Source of the DNA: an uncultured Clostridia bacterium
GTDB lineage: Bacteria; Bacillota; Clostridia; Oscillospirales; Ruminococcaceae
Assembly (NCBI GenBank): GCA_944387885.1
Contig: CALXGR010000021.1
Location: forward strand, 1 to 34,581
Reading direction: 5' to 3'
DNA length: 34,581 nt
Position 1 is the stretch's first letter. The number at the start of each line of letters is the position of its first letter. Made by a program: the position numbers and the translations under genes. Below, in pieces: positions 5,320 to 8,669 of this stretch. Under the pieces are notes generated by a model, which made no database searches, was not told the DNA's origin, and saw only the letters and a list, made by a program, of their open reading frames with translations.

Positions 5320-5580
5320 ATGAAAAAGCTGATTGCCCTTGTTTTTGTTCTTTTGACCGCAGGAATTGTAACGGCTACCGCCGCATTTGCCTCCGGGGCC
5401 AATCACGGTTTTGGTCCCGGGACCGGGGTATGCTCCTACACTCGGGAGGATTGCTCCGGCGGGCGCTGCGCCCGGCAGGAGGACCGTGGAGCAAACTATA
5501 CCGACCAGAACGGGGACGGAGTCTGCGACTACCGCCCCCAGGGCGGCCAGGGCCAAAGAAGGAATCGGTTCTTCCAGTAA
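5320..5580 (+). CDS. Small secreted four-cysteine protein
   Basis: 86 residues. Sec signal peptide MKKLIALVFVLLTAGIVTAT with likely cleavage after AFA (residue 24). The mature ~62 residues hold four cysteines (C38, C45, C50, C69) and a calcium-loop-like DQNGDGVCD at 62-70, ending in a basic Gln/Arg-rich tail. Small exported proteins with DGDGVCD-type loops are common in clostridia but have no assigned function that I know. AGGAGA lies 8 bases before the ATG; the gene follows the reductase gene by 48 bases with no terminator between, so they are probably cotranscribed. A link to thiol redox chemistry is only a guess from position and cysteines. Confidence 0.75.
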   Translation: MKKLIALVFVLLTAGIVTATAAFASGANHGFGPGTGVCSYTREDCSGGRCARQEDRGANYTDQNGDGVCDYRPQGGQGQRRNRFFQ

Positions 5581-5590
5581 TTCAAAAAAA

Positions 5591-5632
5591 TTCCCGGCCG
5601 GTCTCTGTAAAGACCGGCCGGGAACCTTTTTA
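5591..5632. terminator. Bidirectional terminator between the secreted protein and ABC-F genes
   Basis: A perfect 14-bp stem TTCCCGGCCGGTCT (5591-5604) / AGACCGGCCGGGAA (5611-5624) with a 6-base loop. CCTTTTTAT follows on the + strand and TTTTTTT on the - strand, so it ends both convergent units. Confidence 0.95.
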
Positions 5633-7105
5633 TAAAAGCCTTTCCACCTTCACCTGTCCGGTAGCCACCCGTTCCCTGAATTCCCGGTCGTGTTCCACAA
5701 ATACCAGGGTTGGGCAGAATTCCAGGATCAACTGTTCCAGCTGGATGCGAGAGTACAGATCAATGTAATTGAGGGGTTCATCCCACAAGTACAGATGTGC
5801 CCTCTGGGAAAGACTCTGGGCCAGAAGCACCTTTTTCTTCTGGCCTGCGGAGTAAGACTCCAACGGCTCCCGAAATTGTTCCCGCTGAAAATTCAGCTTC
5901 CGGAGGATGGTCATAAAGAGACTTTCCTCCAGCTCCCTCTCTCGGGCAAATTCCTGAAGGGAGCCAGAGAGCGTTTCCATGCCCTGGGGCAGATAAGAGA
6001 CAACCAGCCTCGAAGCCAAGGTCACCACCCCCTTATGGGGCAGAGACTTCCCGGCAAGAAGGCGGAGAATGCTGCTTTTTCCTGCTCCATTCCCCCCGGT
6101 CAGCGCCAGTCTGTCCCCTGCTTCCAATTGAAAGGTCGCCGGGCTGCAGATCTGCCTGTCATCGTATACCGGAATCACCTGGGAAAAAGAAGCCATCTTT
6201 CCTCCCCTCCAAGGCAGCGGGTGAAGTTTCAGATCCTCCGCCTTCTCCACATTTTGGAGCAGGGCGGATTTTTCCTCCAGCGCCTTCTCCCTCCGCTGCT
6301 GGATGGATTTGGAGCGCTTCATCATCTTTGCGGATTTATGTCCCAGGTATCCCCGGTCCACGGGACCCGCTCCAAACTTTTCCCGCTCCCCCCGGCAGGA
6401 CCATGCCGCTGACCGGCGGGCTGACTGTGCCAGGTGGTCTATCTCCCGTCGCAGCCGTTGGTCCCGGGCCAGTTCGAAGGATTGCTGTCGCTCAAAGTTT
6501 TCCAGCCAGGATGAGTAGTTTCCTGCCTGGACCTGGATATCCTTTCGGTTGAAAGCCAAAATATGATCTACGCATCCGTCCAGGAACCTCCGGTCGTGCG
6601 AGACCAGGATGAATCCCTTCTTTCCTTTCAGGTACCGGGAAACCAGTTCCCGTCCCTGGTCATCCAGGTGGTTGGTAGGTTCGTCAATGAGAAGAAAGCG
6701 CCCCGGGTTTAAAAAGAGAGCCGCCAACAACACCTTGGTCTGCTCCCCTTGGGAAAGAGTGGCAAAAGACCGCTCCAAAACCGTCAGGTCCACTTCCAGG
6801 CTGGAAAGTTCCCGCTGGATTTCCCAGTCCTGGGCACAGGAACAAATTTTCCCCATGACCTGCCTGACGGAAAGGGTCTCCTCCACCTGATAGGGAAAAT
6901 AGTCAAACTCCACCGAGGTCTGGATGGTTCCCTGGTAAGGGTGCTTTCCCATAAGCAGCTGGAGAAAGGTGGTTTTTCCCCTGCCGTTTCTTCCAATAAA
7001 TCCCAGCTTCCAGTCAGTGTCCAGCTGGAAGGACAGGTCTTGAAAAAGATCCTCCATCCCTGAGGGATAGGAGAAGGTAAGGTTTTTTACCTGAATCAAA
7101 GACAT
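5630..7105 (-). CDS. ABC-F ribosomal protection protein, Lsa/CplR-like
   Basis: 491 residues, no membrane segments: two fused ATPase domains of the ABC-F class, which bind the ribosomal E site and dislodge antibiotics. Domain 1: GRNGRGKTT (38-46), signature LSQGEQTK, Walker B LLIDEPTNHLDD. A charged interdomain linker follows. Domain 2: GGNGAGKSS, signature YSAGQKKK, Walker B LYLWDEPLNYID. The opening MSLIQVKNLTFSYPSG and FQLDTDWKLGFIGRNGRGKTT, and the WDEPLNYID motif, are characteristic of Lsa-type and clostridial CplR proteins, which give lincosamide, streptogramin A and pleuromutilin resistance. GGGAGG lies 8 bases before the ATG, directly after an upstream terminator (7121-7160), which points to attenuation control. 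The class is sure; the resistance spectrum is inferred. Confidence 0.93.
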   Translation of the reverse strand: MSLIQVKNLTFSYPSGMEDLFQDLSFQLDTDWKLGFIGRNGRGKTTFLQLLMGKHPYQGTIQTSVEFDYFPYQVEETLSVRQVMGKICSCAQDWEIQRELSSLEVDLTVLERSFATLSQGEQTKVLLAALFLNPGRFLLIDEPTNHLDDQGRELVSRYLKGKKGFILVSHDRRFLDGCVDHILAFNRKDIQVQAGNYSSWLENFERQQSFELARDQRLRREIDHLAQSARRSAAWSCRGEREKFGAGPVDRGYLGHKSAKMMKRSKSIQQRREKALEEKSALLQNVEKAEDLKLHPLPWRGGKMASFSQVIPVYDDRQICSPATFQLEAGDRLALTGGNGAGKSSILRLLAGKSLPHKGVVTLASRLVVSYLPQGMETLSGSLQEFARERELEESLFMTILRKLNFQREQFREPLESYSAGQKKKVLLAQSLSQRAHLYLWDEPLNYIDLYSRIQLEQLILEFCPTLVFVEHDREFRERVATGQVKVERLL

Positions 7106-7120
7106 TTTTGGTTCCTCCCT

Positions 7121-7160
7121 GAAAAAAACAGAGCCGCAGGAAATCCGTTTCCCGCAGCTC
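7121..7160 (-). terminator. Attenuator in the ABC-F leader
   Basis: On the - strand a 13-pair stem (arms 7160-7148 and 7143-7131, two G-U pairs) with a TCCG-position loop (7144-7147) is followed by TGTTTTTTTC and then immediately by the ribosome site GGGAGG of the ABC-F gene. A complete intrinsic terminator between promoter and start codon means most transcripts should end early unless the hairpin is prevented. The competing antiterminator helix was not identified with confidence. Confidence 0.85.
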
Positions 7161-7289
7161 CGCAGCCAGACCCTGCCCTCCCTTTAGAATGGAAAAGGCC
7201 GGTAATAGGCAAAAAGGTGGGTTCCGTTTTCCTGCCATGGCAGAGCAGGACCGCTCCCCACTGGGAACGACCCTGTCTCTGATACCAAC

Positions 7290-7304
7290 TTAGCAAGAAA
7301 ACAT
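7290..7304 (-). CDS. Candidate 4-codon regulatory upstream ORF of the ABC-F leader
   Basis: ATG TTT TCT TGC TAA (M-F-S-C), preceded by GGGGTGAAGAG as a plausible ribosome site, about 35 bases after the predicted transcription start and 130 bases before the terminator hairpin. Very short upstream ORFs of this kind control several antibiotic-induced ABC-F genes by ribosome stalling. A competing possibility is a 78-codon frame (ATG at 7332, stop 7096-7098) that crosses the hairpin and ends 10 bases inside the ABC-F start, but it would begin only about 5 bases from the predicted transcript start and has no ribosome site. Confidence 0.4.
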   Translation of the reverse strand: MFSC

Positions 7305-7343
7305 CCGCAATCTCTTCACCCCATTTTCTCATCTCTGCTTCTG

Positions 7344-7372
7344 ACCATACCACAAACCTTCAAAAAAGGCAA
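7344..7372 (-). promoter_or_regulatory. Promoter of the ABC-F leader
   Basis: On the - strand TTGCCT (7367-7372), 17-base spacer, TATGGT (7344-7349) with TG just upstream (GTGGTATGGT). The predicted start near 7337 gives a leader of roughly 230 bases, long for this genome and consistent with regulation in the leader. Confidence 0.65.
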
Positions 7373-7481: not shown

Positions 7482-8240
7482 TTACAGGGGATCTCCTCCC
7501 CGTTCCTGCTTGATGGCGGTAACCGTGTAGACCACTTGCAGGGTAGCCCAGATAATCAGGGGCGGAAGGGTGGCAAAGAGTCCGGTGCCCATCATAAAGT
7601 TGGACACCGCCGTGACCAGCCACAAAATGGCGGCCACCTGGGCAGTGACAAAATAAGCTTTATAGCTGGCCTGACCGATTTTGGCCCGTTCTGCCTCGTC
7701 GCAGCTTTCCAGCCATTTTTTCTGAAATTTCAGGTCATAGACACTGCCCTGCTTTTCCGGGTTCATCCGGCGGGTCAGGTCCACCACCTTCTGCTGAAGC
7801 AGGACCACCAGCACCAGATCCAGACAGTACAGTACAATGGTCAGAAACATTCCCTGGTTGGTGCTGGCCATGTGGCAGGCCGACAGGAAGAAGCAGTCCA
7901 GGATAAAAGCCAGGTTGGAGAAAAGCAGGCTGTAATTCAGCTTTTCCTCGGCCTTGCGGGGAAGTTCTTCCTCCTCCCCATCCCAGCTTTGGAACAACTT
8001 ATTGGCCTTGCGGTAGAGCAGCCAGGCCGGCAGCACCAATGTGACCATAATGACGGGGATGCCCCAGGGAACTACCACTCCCAGCACTGCGAGGATGGTG
8101 TCCTGGGCATTTTCCAGGTTCTGTATTCCCAGAATCCCTCCGCAGAAGCCCAACAAACCGCCGCCCAGAGCCGACACCAGCAAAACCAGAATAAACTTGG
8201 GAAAGGCTTTTCTGTTTTCTCGTTCAACATTATCCTTCAT
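7482..8240 (-). CDS. DUF3169-type integral membrane protein
   Basis: 252 residues from the ATG at 8240. Six hydrophobic segments appear: two in the first 75 residues (FILVLLVSALGGGLLGFCGG; ILAVLGVVVPWGIPVIMVTL), two around the middle (LLFSNLAFILDCFFLSA; MFLTIVLYCLDLVLVVLL) and two near the end (AYFVTAQVAAILWLVTAV; LPPLIIWATLQVVYTV), with an acidic cytoplasmic loop EEEELPRKAEE. This fits the DUF3169 family, usually found beside an XRE regulator; the function is unknown. GAGGAGG is too close to the ATG at 8246 but well placed for 8240. The start lies inside the 3' end of the regulator gene, so translation is coupled. Confidence 0.78.
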   Translation of the reverse strand: MKDNVERENRKAFPKFILVLLVSALGGGLLGFCGGILGIQNLENAQDTILAVLGVVVPWGIPVIMVTLVLPAWLLYRKANKLFQSWDGEEEELPRKAEEKLNYSLLFSNLAFILDCFFLSACHMASTNQGMFLTIVLYCLDLVLVVLLQQKVVDLTRRMNPEKQGSVYDLKFQKKWLESCDEAERAKIGQASYKAYFVTAQVAAILWLVTAVSNFMMGTGLFATLPPLIIWATLQVVYTVTAIKQERGGDPL

Positions 8241-8448
8241 GGTCATTTTCCTCCTCGTAACTGAATATTTCCTCCACTGTCACCCCGCAGAGTTTGGCCA
8301 GCTTCAAAGCCAGGGTCACGGAGGGAGAGTAGTCTCCCCGCTCGATCTGGCTGATGGTCTGGCGGGATACCCCTGCCAGACGCCCCATCTCCTGCTGGTT
8401 CACCCCCAAGCGGGCTCTATGTTCCTTCAATCGATTGTACAGAGGCAT
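8230..8448 (-). CDS. XRE-family helix-turn-helix regulator (72 aa)
   Basis: A single Cro/CI-type HTH with little else: RLKEHRARLGVNQQEMGRLAGVSRQTISQIERGDYSPSV, then LALKLAKLCGVTVEEIFSYEEE. Proteins of this size act as dimers. The ATG at 8448 follows GGAGGTGG by 4 bases; the frame is open further upstream to 8622 but that would cover the promoter. The 3' end overlaps the DUF3169 gene by 11 bases. Three copies of an inverted repeat sit over its own promoter (8465-8537), so it very probably represses itself and the membrane protein; the signal is unknown. Confidence 0.92.
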   Translation of the reverse strand: MPLYNRLKEHRARLGVNQQEMGRLAGVSRQTISQIERGDYSPSVTLALKLAKLCGVTVEEIFSYEEENDHEG

Positions 8449-8464
8449 GGCGCCACCTCCATTC

Positions 8465-8537
8465 TGACAACTTTCCAAGTCAACTTGACAACTATTCTTG
8501 TCATCTTTAGGATAGCATTGACAAGGAAAGTTGTCAA
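8465..8537 (-). promoter_or_regulatory. XRE-DUF3169 promoter with three TGACAA-N6-TTGTCA operators
   Basis: Promoter on the - strand: TTGACA (8532-8537), 17-base spacer, TATCCT (8509-8514). Operators: 8519-8536 (perfect, covering the -35), 8486-8503 (perfect, just downstream of the start site) and 8465-8482 (one half is AAGTCA). Centres are 21 and 33 bases apart, close to two and three helical turns, so bound dimers would face the same side. This is the layout of an autorepressor with cooperative binding. Confidence 0.85.
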
Positions 8538-8599
8538 TGCCTTTTTGAATTTTTCCCAAAAAATTTATTGGAACCAGGGGATGAAACCCGGAATTCTCC

Positions 8600-8669
8600 C
8601 GGTTGCAACCCTCGGTTGACAAAAAAGTGGGTCCGATTGGTAGCCTGCAACCGATTTTTTTGGTAGAAT
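8600..8669 (+). promoter_or_regulatory. Promoter region of the XRE-membrane protein gene
   Basis: TAGAAT (8664-8669) with upstream TG (TTGGTAGAAT) is the best -10; there is no good -35 at 17 bases. TTGACA at 8616-8621 pairs only with TAGCCT at 19 bases. CGGTTGCA (8600-8607) and TGCAACCG (8646-8653) are an inverted repeat flanking this, and GGTTGCAACC at 8601-8610 is itself a palindrome, so operator sites are likely. Confidence 0.45.

What the first reader, a model, noticed from the sequence alone, without database searches (positions are those of the whole stretch)
7105..7372. Attenuated leader of an Lsa/CplR-like ABC-F gene
A good promoter (7344-7372), a 4-codon ORF M-F-S-C with a ribosome site (7290-7304), then a full intrinsic terminator (7121-7160) followed at once by the ABC-F ribosome site: the order expected for antibiotic-induced antitermination by ribosome stalling. 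A second, 78-codon frame crosses the hairpin and ends 10 bases inside the ABC-F gene, which would offer a different, coupling-based mechanism. The sensor peptide and antiterminator appear specific to this lineage.
Basis: partly seen in the sequence, partly recalled or inferred. Interest (0 to 1): 0.7.

Follow-up and report, generated by a model that had tools for sequence, protein, structure and literature searches.

The report
Drug-sensing RNA switch before resistance gene
In front of a gene that looks like an antibiotic-resistance factor of the Lsa group (ABC-F proteins that likely free ribosomes from drugs) lies a leader with a six-codon reading frame, a matching RNA strand and a transcription-stop hairpin, a layout that recurs before this gene in many related bacteria and is predicted to let the gene be copied only when a drug-stalled ribosome sits on the tiny reading frame.

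Summary
The observed parts are there: promoter-like site, short ORF, strong intrinsic terminator (7163-7128, T-run to 7122), ABC-F gene (7105-5630, minus strand). The gene is Lsa-like, not CplR-like. The 4-codon ORF is most likely the tail of a six-codon TTG-started uORF, MRMFSC (7310-7290). It is not lineage-specific: matching uORFs precede Lsa-like genes in 11 of 15 families of the order, in other orders of the class, and plasmid lsa(E). In 64 of 64 M-x-x-x-S-C leaders Cys is UGC, so the conserved "peptide" end is mainly an RNA pairing strand. Strand 2, the uORF's partner, is also the best partner of the terminator's 3' arm in 64 of 105 leaders (17.6 expected); in vmlR and CplR-like leaders it fits the 5' arm instead. 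Energy scans open a window for this antiterminator in 57 of 63 leaders with a ribosome on the uORF, 1 of 63 without. I read it as ribosome-mediated transcription attenuation with a reversed antiterminator, a new variant of a known kind. Weak points: in the window itself the terminator is very strong, and most leaders with very short uORFs do not show the 3'-arm match. Drug response is untested.

The parts
7344..7372 (-). promoter-like site TTGCCT-17-TATGGT (TG before the -10)
   Evidence: sequence; 8 of 12 consensus matches, below the threshold of the scan; inferred
7316..7322 (-). uORF ribosome-binding site GGGGTGA
   Evidence: sequence; aligned with the GGAGGTGAAA consensus of 57 leaders
7290..7310 (-). 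uORF TTG CGG ATG TTT TCT TGC TAA, MRMFSC
7293..7301 (-). strand 1, TTTTCTTGC, within the uORF
   Evidence: pairs with strand 2; covariation of 1:2
7224..7236 (-). strand 2, GGCAGGAAAACGG (core GCAGGAAA 7235-7228): partner of strand 1 and of strand 4
7148..7163 (-). strand 3, 5' arm of the intrinsic terminator
7128..7143 (-). strand 4, 3' arm of the terminator, holds TTTCCTGC complementary to strand 2
7122..7128 (-). T-run of the terminator
   Evidence: sequence
7114..7119 (-). ABC-F ribosome-binding site GGGAGG, outside the terminator
   Evidence: sequence
5630..7105 (-). Lsa-like ribosome-protection ABC-F gene, 491 aa
   Evidence: NF000355 444.8 bits (cut-off 380), NF000167 Lsa 663.8 (cut-off 750); best PDB sequence match 7nhk, Lsa(A)

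Best explanation
The leader 7372-7105 is most likely a transcription attenuator that senses ribosomes stalled by drugs of the peptidyl-transferase centre and would then let transcription run on into the Lsa-like ABC-F gene. Proposed steps: (1) Without drug, ribosomes finish the six-codon uORF and leave; its RNA (strand 1, UUUUCUUGC) pairs with strand 2 (GCAGGAAA), terminator arms 3 and 4 pair, and transcription stops at the T-run [complementarity and covariation shown; the event inferred]. (2) With a lincosamide, pleuromutilin or streptogramin A, a ribosome is predicted to stall at or just after the uORF start codon; its footprint (to about +16) covers strand 1 [inferred from published uORFs]. 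(3) Strand 2 is then free and would pair with the terminator's loop and 3' arm (strand 4) as these emerge, before arm 3 can close the hairpin [2:4 complementarity shown; order of events predicted from energies]. (4) Transcription continues; the ABC-F ribosome site lies outside the hairpin, so no second, translational lock is expected [sequence]. The conserved S-C end of the uORF is mainly an RNA strand placed under the footprint of a start-codon ribosome, not a stalling peptide [supported by codon use].
For: Conservation: uORF in 106 of 116 leaders against 25 of 116 shuffled; terminator in 105 of 107; covariance model R1 hits 43 of 392 class genomes at E<=1e-4, 37 of them outside the window's order and so independent of the sequences it was built from; in the order it hits 93 of 394 at E<=0.01, but many of these are its own source sequences and hits above about 1e-4 are probably chance. 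RNA not peptide: 64 of 64 Cys codons UGC, Ser only UCU/UCC, against UGC 202: UGU 129 in 50 ABC-F genes, P = 6e-13 for 57 distinct uORFs; strand-1 letters kept beyond an earlier stop in 9 of 22 leaders listed as short (by eye). Pairing 1:2: 8 pairs, 5 with changes on both sides. Pairing 2:4: strand 2 is the best partner of strand 4 in 64 of 105 (expected 17.6; 50 of 65 in MxxxSC leaders, expected 10.1), of strand 3 in 10 of 105; one leader per group, 13.0 of 23 against 3.8; native against swapped duplexes -16.0 / -12.3 kcal, 0 of 400; covariation p = 2.7e-6, and p = 0.0023 where strand 1 does not change; 2:4 reaches 3.4 pairs into the terminator loop, 2.3 with swapped loops, 0 of 200. Energy scan: antiterminator favoured at some length in 57 of 63 with a ribosome, 1 of 63 without, 16 of 63 with strand 2 shuffled.
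Against: No transcript, drug or reporter data. In the window itself the terminator is very strong: at equilibrium it wins in every state, and the ribosome-dependent opening is small (best -2.2 kcal; terminator ahead by 11.2 at full length). With another windowing the window's best partner of strand 4 was a different stretch. 41 of 105 leaders do not have strand 2 as best partner of strand 4, among them 17 of the 21 with uORFs of at most four codons, so that part of the family may switch otherwise, and the leaders that best argue for RNA over peptide are mostly not those that show 2:4. 1:3 duplexes also beat all 400 swaps, though only by 0.8 kcal. Leaders are related by descent; the one-per-group draw and the swaps lessen but do not remove this. 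The scan is of energies, not kinetics, and ignores the RNA hidden inside RNA polymerase; at full length the terminator leads in 46 of 63 even with the ribosome. The window's uORF starts with TTG and its promoter match is modest.
Confidence: 0.7

Rival explanations
1. Ribosome-mediated attenuation of the vmlR/cplR sort: strand 2 pairs with the terminator's 5' arm, and the 2:4 match is a by-product of a duplicated hairpin.
For: An anti-antiterminator/antiterminator/terminator scheme is published for vmlR and a two-state scheme for cplR (PMC9226507 and PMC10201436, passages and one section each); in 11 of 15 resolved CplR-like leaders and in a vmlR leader the 5' arm is the one that fits strand 2.
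Against: In Lsa-like leaders strand 2 is the best partner of the 5' arm in only 10 of 105, below the 17.6 expected; 2:3 duplexes are barely better than swapped ones (-7.5 / -7.2, reached by 19 of 400); 2:4 covaries even where strand 1 is fixed.
Confidence: 0.11
2. A true arrest peptide: the nascent F-S-C stops the ribosome at the stop codon in the presence of a drug, as MsrDL (MYLIFM) does with erythromycin.
For: S-C-stop or S-C-K/R-stop is strikingly conserved; MsrDL stalls at its stop codon (PMC10314930, passages).
Against: Cys only UGC, Ser only UCU/UCC; 9 of 22 short-uORF leaders keep the RNA but not the peptide; [quoted passage not shown]
Confidence: 0.1
3. Coupling by the 78-codon frame: a ribosome on that frame melts the terminator and delivers ribosomes to the ABC-F start.
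For: The frame is open and ends 10 bases inside the gene.
Against: No ribosome site by eye; only about 5 bases from the presumed transcription start; frames that start upstream of the uORF and stay open through the terminator occur in 16 of 105 leaders, at differing positions; such translation would defeat the terminator all the time.
Confidence: 0.02
4. A plain terminator-controlled low-expression leader without drug response, the uORF being a relic.
For: In the window the terminator outweighs the antiterminator by far.
Against: uORF, strand 2 and terminator are kept together in the window and in over a hundred relatives.
Confidence: 0.07

Closest known systems
vmlR leader of Bacillus subtilis (uORF MIN; SL-1 anti-antiterminator, antiterminator, SL-3 terminator; PMC9226507, passages and section 22)
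   Same: very short uORF inside an anti-antiterminator hairpin, intrinsic terminator, ABC-F gene; a ribosome at the start codon is the trigger
   Different: strand 2 fits the terminator 5' arm (read from the B. tequilensis locus L083, taken as vmlR by its MIN uORF) and a further hairpin partly hides the gene's ribosome site (paper); here the 3' arm fits and the ribosome site is free; model R1 does not match L083 at E<=1
cplR leader of Clostridioides difficile (uORF MR[I/M]; PMC10201436, passages and section 20)
   Same: short uORF, hairpin over the uORF, terminator, ABC-F gene against pleuromutilins, lincosamides and streptogramins A
   Different: the terminator hairpin holds the gene's ribosome site (paper); in CplR-like leaders the 5' arm fits strand 2 in 11 of 15, the 3' arm in 0 of 15
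lsa(E) leader on plasmids, mostly of Enterococcus (L107)
   Same: same leader by eye and alignment: MYNFSC uORF, strand 2 GCAAGAAAG, terminator; protein 53.5% identical. R1 scores it at E 3.3e-16, but it was among the model's source sequences
   Different: followed by a second leader element before lsa(E); I found no paper describing this leader
lsa(A) of Enterococcus faecalis (uORF MAGN per PMC10201436, passages)
   Same: related ABC-F protein (7nhk)
   Different: different uORF consensus; its leader was not fetched here
msrD leader (MsrDL MYLIFM; PMC10314930, passages)
   Same: six-codon uORF and transcription attenuation of an ABC-F gene
   Different: peptide-dependent macrolide arrest at the stop codon

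Membership tests
ARE ABC-F, Lsa family (NCBIfam NF000167) | score over the curated cut-off of 750 bits | tested here: not met
   663.8 bits, the best-scoring family, cut-off 750; so 'Lsa-like', not filed as Lsa
Ribosomal-protection ABC-F (NF000355) | score over the curated cut-off of 380 bits | tested here: met
   444.8 bits
CplR (NF043038) | score over the curated cut-off of 780 bits | tested here: not met
   137.7 bits
Ribosome-mediated transcription attenuators of ABC-F genes | short uORF with ribosome site upstream of an intrinsic terminator upstream of the gene | tested here: met
   105 of 107 leaders with a uORF also have the terminator
Ribosome-mediated transcription attenuators of ABC-F genes | mutually exclusive anti-antiterminator, antiterminator and terminator | tested here: inconclusive
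   for the family: 1:2, 2:4 and 3:4 share strands and native duplexes beat swapped ones in all three; for the window alone 2:4 is weak against the terminator
Ribosome-mediated transcription attenuators of ABC-F genes | drug-dependent stalling on the uORF and rise in read-through | not testable with these tools
   needs RNA or reporter data
vmlR/cplR sub-type | antiterminator strand fits the terminator 5' arm | tested here: not met
   10 of 105 Lsa-like leaders (17.6 expected) against 11 of 15 CplR-like and one vmlR leader
cplR sub-type | gene's ribosome site sequestered in the terminator hairpin | tested here: not met
   GGGAGG 7119-7114 lies after the T-run
MsrDL-type arrest peptide | peptide sequence, not RNA, is what is kept | tested here: not met
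   UGC 64 of 64, Ser UCU/UCC only; 9 of 22 short-uORF leaders keep the RNA past the stop. Codon 2 Arg with five codons hints that the first residues may be kept as peptide

The most novel reading that the evidence does not exclude
A widespread attenuator class with reversed wiring: a ribosome stalled on the start codon frees one RNA strand, which seizes the terminator by its loop and 3' arm as they emerge, a race decided base by base during transcription. Its 'leader peptide' is a disguise for a pairing strand. The module travels: it rode with lsa(E) onto Enterococcus plasmids, and single copies stand before another ABC-F subfamily and before an MsbA-like ABC exporter.
Probability: 0.5. Interest if true: 0.75.

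Novelty: new variant of a known kind. Interest (0 to 1): 0.6.

Why it matters
If right, one leader class governs when a resistance-type factor is made in many bacteria of this class (the gene is in 98 of 394 sampled genomes of the order), and it explains the leader carried by the known mobile gene lsa(E). It separates two things usually merged in short leader ORFs: where a drug stalls the ribosome (start codon) and why the following codons are conserved (RNA pairing). It also offers a natural comparison of two antiterminator wirings, 5' arm in CplR and VmlR against 3' arm here, for the same kind of gene, which makes the question of how antiterminators win against terminators directly testable.

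Tried and rejected
Rejected: the 78-codon coupling frame; the inner ATG as sole start; CplR affiliation; a peptide-arrest reading; a 1:3 antiterminator (1:3 native -8.6 against swapped -7.8; it too beats all 400 swaps, but by far less than 2:4). Rfam: no family at gathering score in the window. The named genome scan used patterns common to ABC-F proteins, so only L025-L035 were close relatives; of these L025, L028, L034 and L035 were left out of the leader set (contig start, Bacilli, or no leader seen). From the order search (98 of 394 genomes) G363 and G193 were not fetched and L148 was dropped because the contig ends; L106 and L108 were fetched but not counted. From the automatic uORF list (106 of 116) I dropped L139 and L174 as spurious and added L007, L032 and L152 just below the score, 107 in all; left without a uORF: L012, L119, L126, L133, L137, L138, L140 and the two dropped. 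Equilibrium folding did not show an antiterminator in the window in any state. One search used slightly different windows and gave 15 of 30 where one search gave 18 of 30. First CplR-leader pass resolved 7 of 27 loci (5' arm 3, 3' arm 0) because its ribosome-site rule was too strict; the second resolved 15 of 27. Weak model hits L230-L234 look like chance; about 20 further weak hits and one (G645:C159) were not read. In one search all 8 truncated uORFs keep strand 1, but model and search motif both contain that strand, so this is no frequency. In the genus of the exporter genome 11 of 71 genomes have a leader hit: besides the exporter itself, 8 lead to Lsa-like ABC-F, L304 was not resolved and L310 is the leader L178 already in the set; the exporter protein itself was not searched for.
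Full report
1. What is there. On the minus strand of the window a promoter-like site (7372-7344) is followed by the ribosome site GGGGTGA (7322-7316), the uORF TTG CGG ATG TTT TCT TGC TAA (7310-7290), a stretch GGCAGGAAAACGG (7236-7224), a 16-pair terminator hairpin (7163-7128) with seven T (7128-7122), the site GGGAGG (7119-7114) and the ABC-F gene (7105-5630). The leader folds 5.6 sd better than its shuffles.

2. The gene. 491 aa; over the cut-off of the ribosomal-protection ABC-F model (444.8, cut-off 380); best family score Lsa, 663.8, below its cut-off of 750; CplR only 137.7. Best sequence match among solved structures: Lsa(A), 7nhk. I call it Lsa-like. A homologue at E<=1e-120 occurs in 98 of 394 genomes of the order.

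3. The leader in relatives. I assembled 116 leaders: 22 loci (window included), 7 named loci, 2 plasmid loci, 26 loci and 59 of 60 regions. A uORF of 2-8 codons with ribosome site and antisense partner is found in 106 of 116 (25 of 116 after shuffling). After dropping two and adding three by eye, 107 remain; 105 have a terminator between uORF and gene. 64 uORFs read M-x-x-x-S-C. The window's TTG start aligns with their starts. MxxxSC leaders (Ser or Ala at position 5) occur in 11 of 15 families of the order in the set. A covariance model R1 of 57 leaders hits 93 of 394 genomes of the order at E<=0.01, many of them its own sources, and 43 of 392 of the class at E<=1e-4, of which 37 lie outside the order.

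4. Peptide or RNA. In 64 of 64 MxxxSC uORFs Cys is UGC, and Ser is UCU (47) or UCC (17) only. In 50 related ABC-F genes Cys is UGC 202 and UGU 129 times and Ser uses all six codons. Of the 22 leaders that one search lists as short, 9 keep UUYYUGC-like letters after the early stop (by eye: L006, L017, L023, L105, L151, L159, L161, L163, L172) and 13 do not. Eight class loci with truncated uORFs also keep them, but they were found through a model and a motif that contain this strand. On a protein tree of 84 of 141 loci, 12 of them truncated with the strand kept, the state took 9 parsimony changes. So the second half of the uORF is kept largely as RNA. The first half may still matter as peptide: codon 2 is Arg with CGC 28, CGT 15, AGG 4, AGA 3, CGG 1 among 95 distinct uORFs.

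5. The switch. Name the uORF strand 1, its partner 2, the terminator arms 3 and 4. 1:2 covaries (5 of 8 consensus pairs with changes on both sides). The best partner of strand 4 between uORF and terminator is strand 2 in 64 of 105 leaders (17.6 expected, p 1e-24 if leaders were independent; 50 of 65 for MxxxSC); the best partner of strand 3 is strand 2 in 10 of 105. Of the 21 leaders with uORFs of at most four codons only 4 show it. Drawing one leader per group (14 families and 9 single named loci): 13.0 of 23 on average, at least 8, against 3.8 expected, and 2.7 for strand 3. Native duplexes beat swapped ones for 1:2 (-18.0 / -12.7), 3:4 (-21.0 / -12.7) and 2:4 (-16.0 / -12.3), 0 of 400 shuffles each; 1:3 gains 0.8 kcal (also 0 of 400) and 2:3 gains 0.4 (19 of 400) (68 SC-like of 98 distinct leaders; with all 98, 2:4 is -14.6 / -11.0, 0 of 400, and 2:3 -7.7 / -7.3, 4 of 400). 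The 2:4 octamer is fully paired in 40 of 57 and in at least 7 positions in 51 of 57; its variable pair covaries (p 2.7e-6), also within the 38 leaders whose strand 1 has U there (p 0.0023). The 2:4 helix reaches into the terminator loop by 3.4 pairs on average, 2.3 with loops swapped (0 of 200).

6. How it could win. Comparing, base by base as loop and strand 4 emerge, the best structure without 3:4 and the best without 2:4 (63 of the 68 SC-like leaders, those with strand 2 within 100 bases of the uORF start): with bases -15 to +16 of the uORF covered, 2:4 is favoured by at least 1 kcal at some length in 57 of 63 (median best -5.4; at full length the terminator leads by 1.8 at the median, 2:4 still level or ahead in 17 of 63); without a ribosome in 1 of 63 (terminator leads by 13.5). 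With strand 2 shuffled 16 of 63, median 0.0. In the window the effect is small: best -2.2, terminator ahead by 11.2 at full length. These are energies, not rates.

7. Comparison. In a vmlR leader (L083) strand 2 is the best partner of the terminator 5' arm; in CplR-like leaders so in 11 of 15 resolved of 27 loci, and of the 3' arm in 0 of 15 (only 3 of the 27 loci, in 2 genomes, are over the CplR cut-off). The cplR terminator also hides the gene's ribosome site (PMC10201436, passages and section 20); here that site is outside. Published uORFs: VmlR MIN, VmlR2 MK[L/Q], CplR MR[I/M], LsaA MAGN (same paper). I saw no paper with these peptides (its 5 listed papers are unrelated by title) or on an lsa(E) attenuator; supplementary files and most subscription journals were not searchable.

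8. Spread of the module. lsa(E) on an E. faecalis plasmid carries the leader (MYNFSC); the 400 bases before lsa(E) match in 111 plasmid records, 102 of them over at least 80%. Its nearest protein in my set is a class genome with the same uORF, L245, 75%. lsa(B), vmlR, Lysinibacillus and Paenibacillus leaders do not match R1 at E<=1. Of 25 class loci read all lead, by their N-terminal sequence, to Lsa-like ABC-F; of 12, 11 do and one (L263) leads to another ribosomal-protection ABC-F (424.9 bits against cut-off 380, nearest CplR 322 and Msr 319). Of 10 regions fetched for R1 hits away from a known ABC-F, L225 ends with the leader at a contig end, L226 shows an ABC-F start, L229 reads as a broken ABC-F, L228 precedes an MsbA-like ABC exporter (301 bits, cut-off 602), L227 has no fitting gene and L230-L234 look like chance. 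The exporter case is single: among leader hits in 70 other genomes of that genus no second one was seen.

9. Verdict. The finding is real and of a known kind, a ribosome-sensed attenuator of an ABC-F gene, but it belongs to a large class, undescribed in the papers I could search, whose antiterminator fits the terminator's 3' arm. Drug induction, start-codon stalling and read-through are inferred.

Noticed in passing
L107:622-1000 and L106, L035, L226: Before lsa(E), lsa(B), a Lysinibacillus lsa-like gene and one ABC-F of genome G115 there is, by eye, a second, different leader element with a longer ORF and a ...CTCCGTATA...TATACGGAG... pairing close to the gene (clearest in lsa(B), Lysinibacillus and G115); in lsa(E) and G115 it follows the attenuator.
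   Followed up: no
L228:1272-2987 (minus): The same leader (MIYVSC, terminator with T7) stands before an MsbA-like ABC exporter in one genome; single case.
   Followed up: partly
L263:794-2323 (minus): The same leader stands before an ABC-F of another subfamily (nearest CplR/Msr).
   Followed up: partly
L227: A well-scoring leader (MHKFSC) with no ABC-F behind it; the next long frame starts about 480 bases on and looks unrelated: orphan or relic.
   Followed up: no
L031 and L033 leaders: In these MRK/MKK leaders the hairpin over the uORF extends to its own ribosome site (GAGAGGUG with ACCUCU) and is followed by a T-run, so the uORF hairpin itself looks like a terminator.
   Followed up: no
L229: Leader before an ABC-F gene that reads as broken.
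   Followed up: no
window 7482-8622: Upstream, on the same strand, a DUF3169 gene (7482-8246) and an HTH_3 regulator (8230-8622), followed by a terminator-like hairpin at 7474-7450.
   Followed up: no
window 5591-5624: Strong palindromic terminator-like hairpin between the ABC-F gene and a convergent small secreted-looking protein (5320-5580).
   Followed up: no
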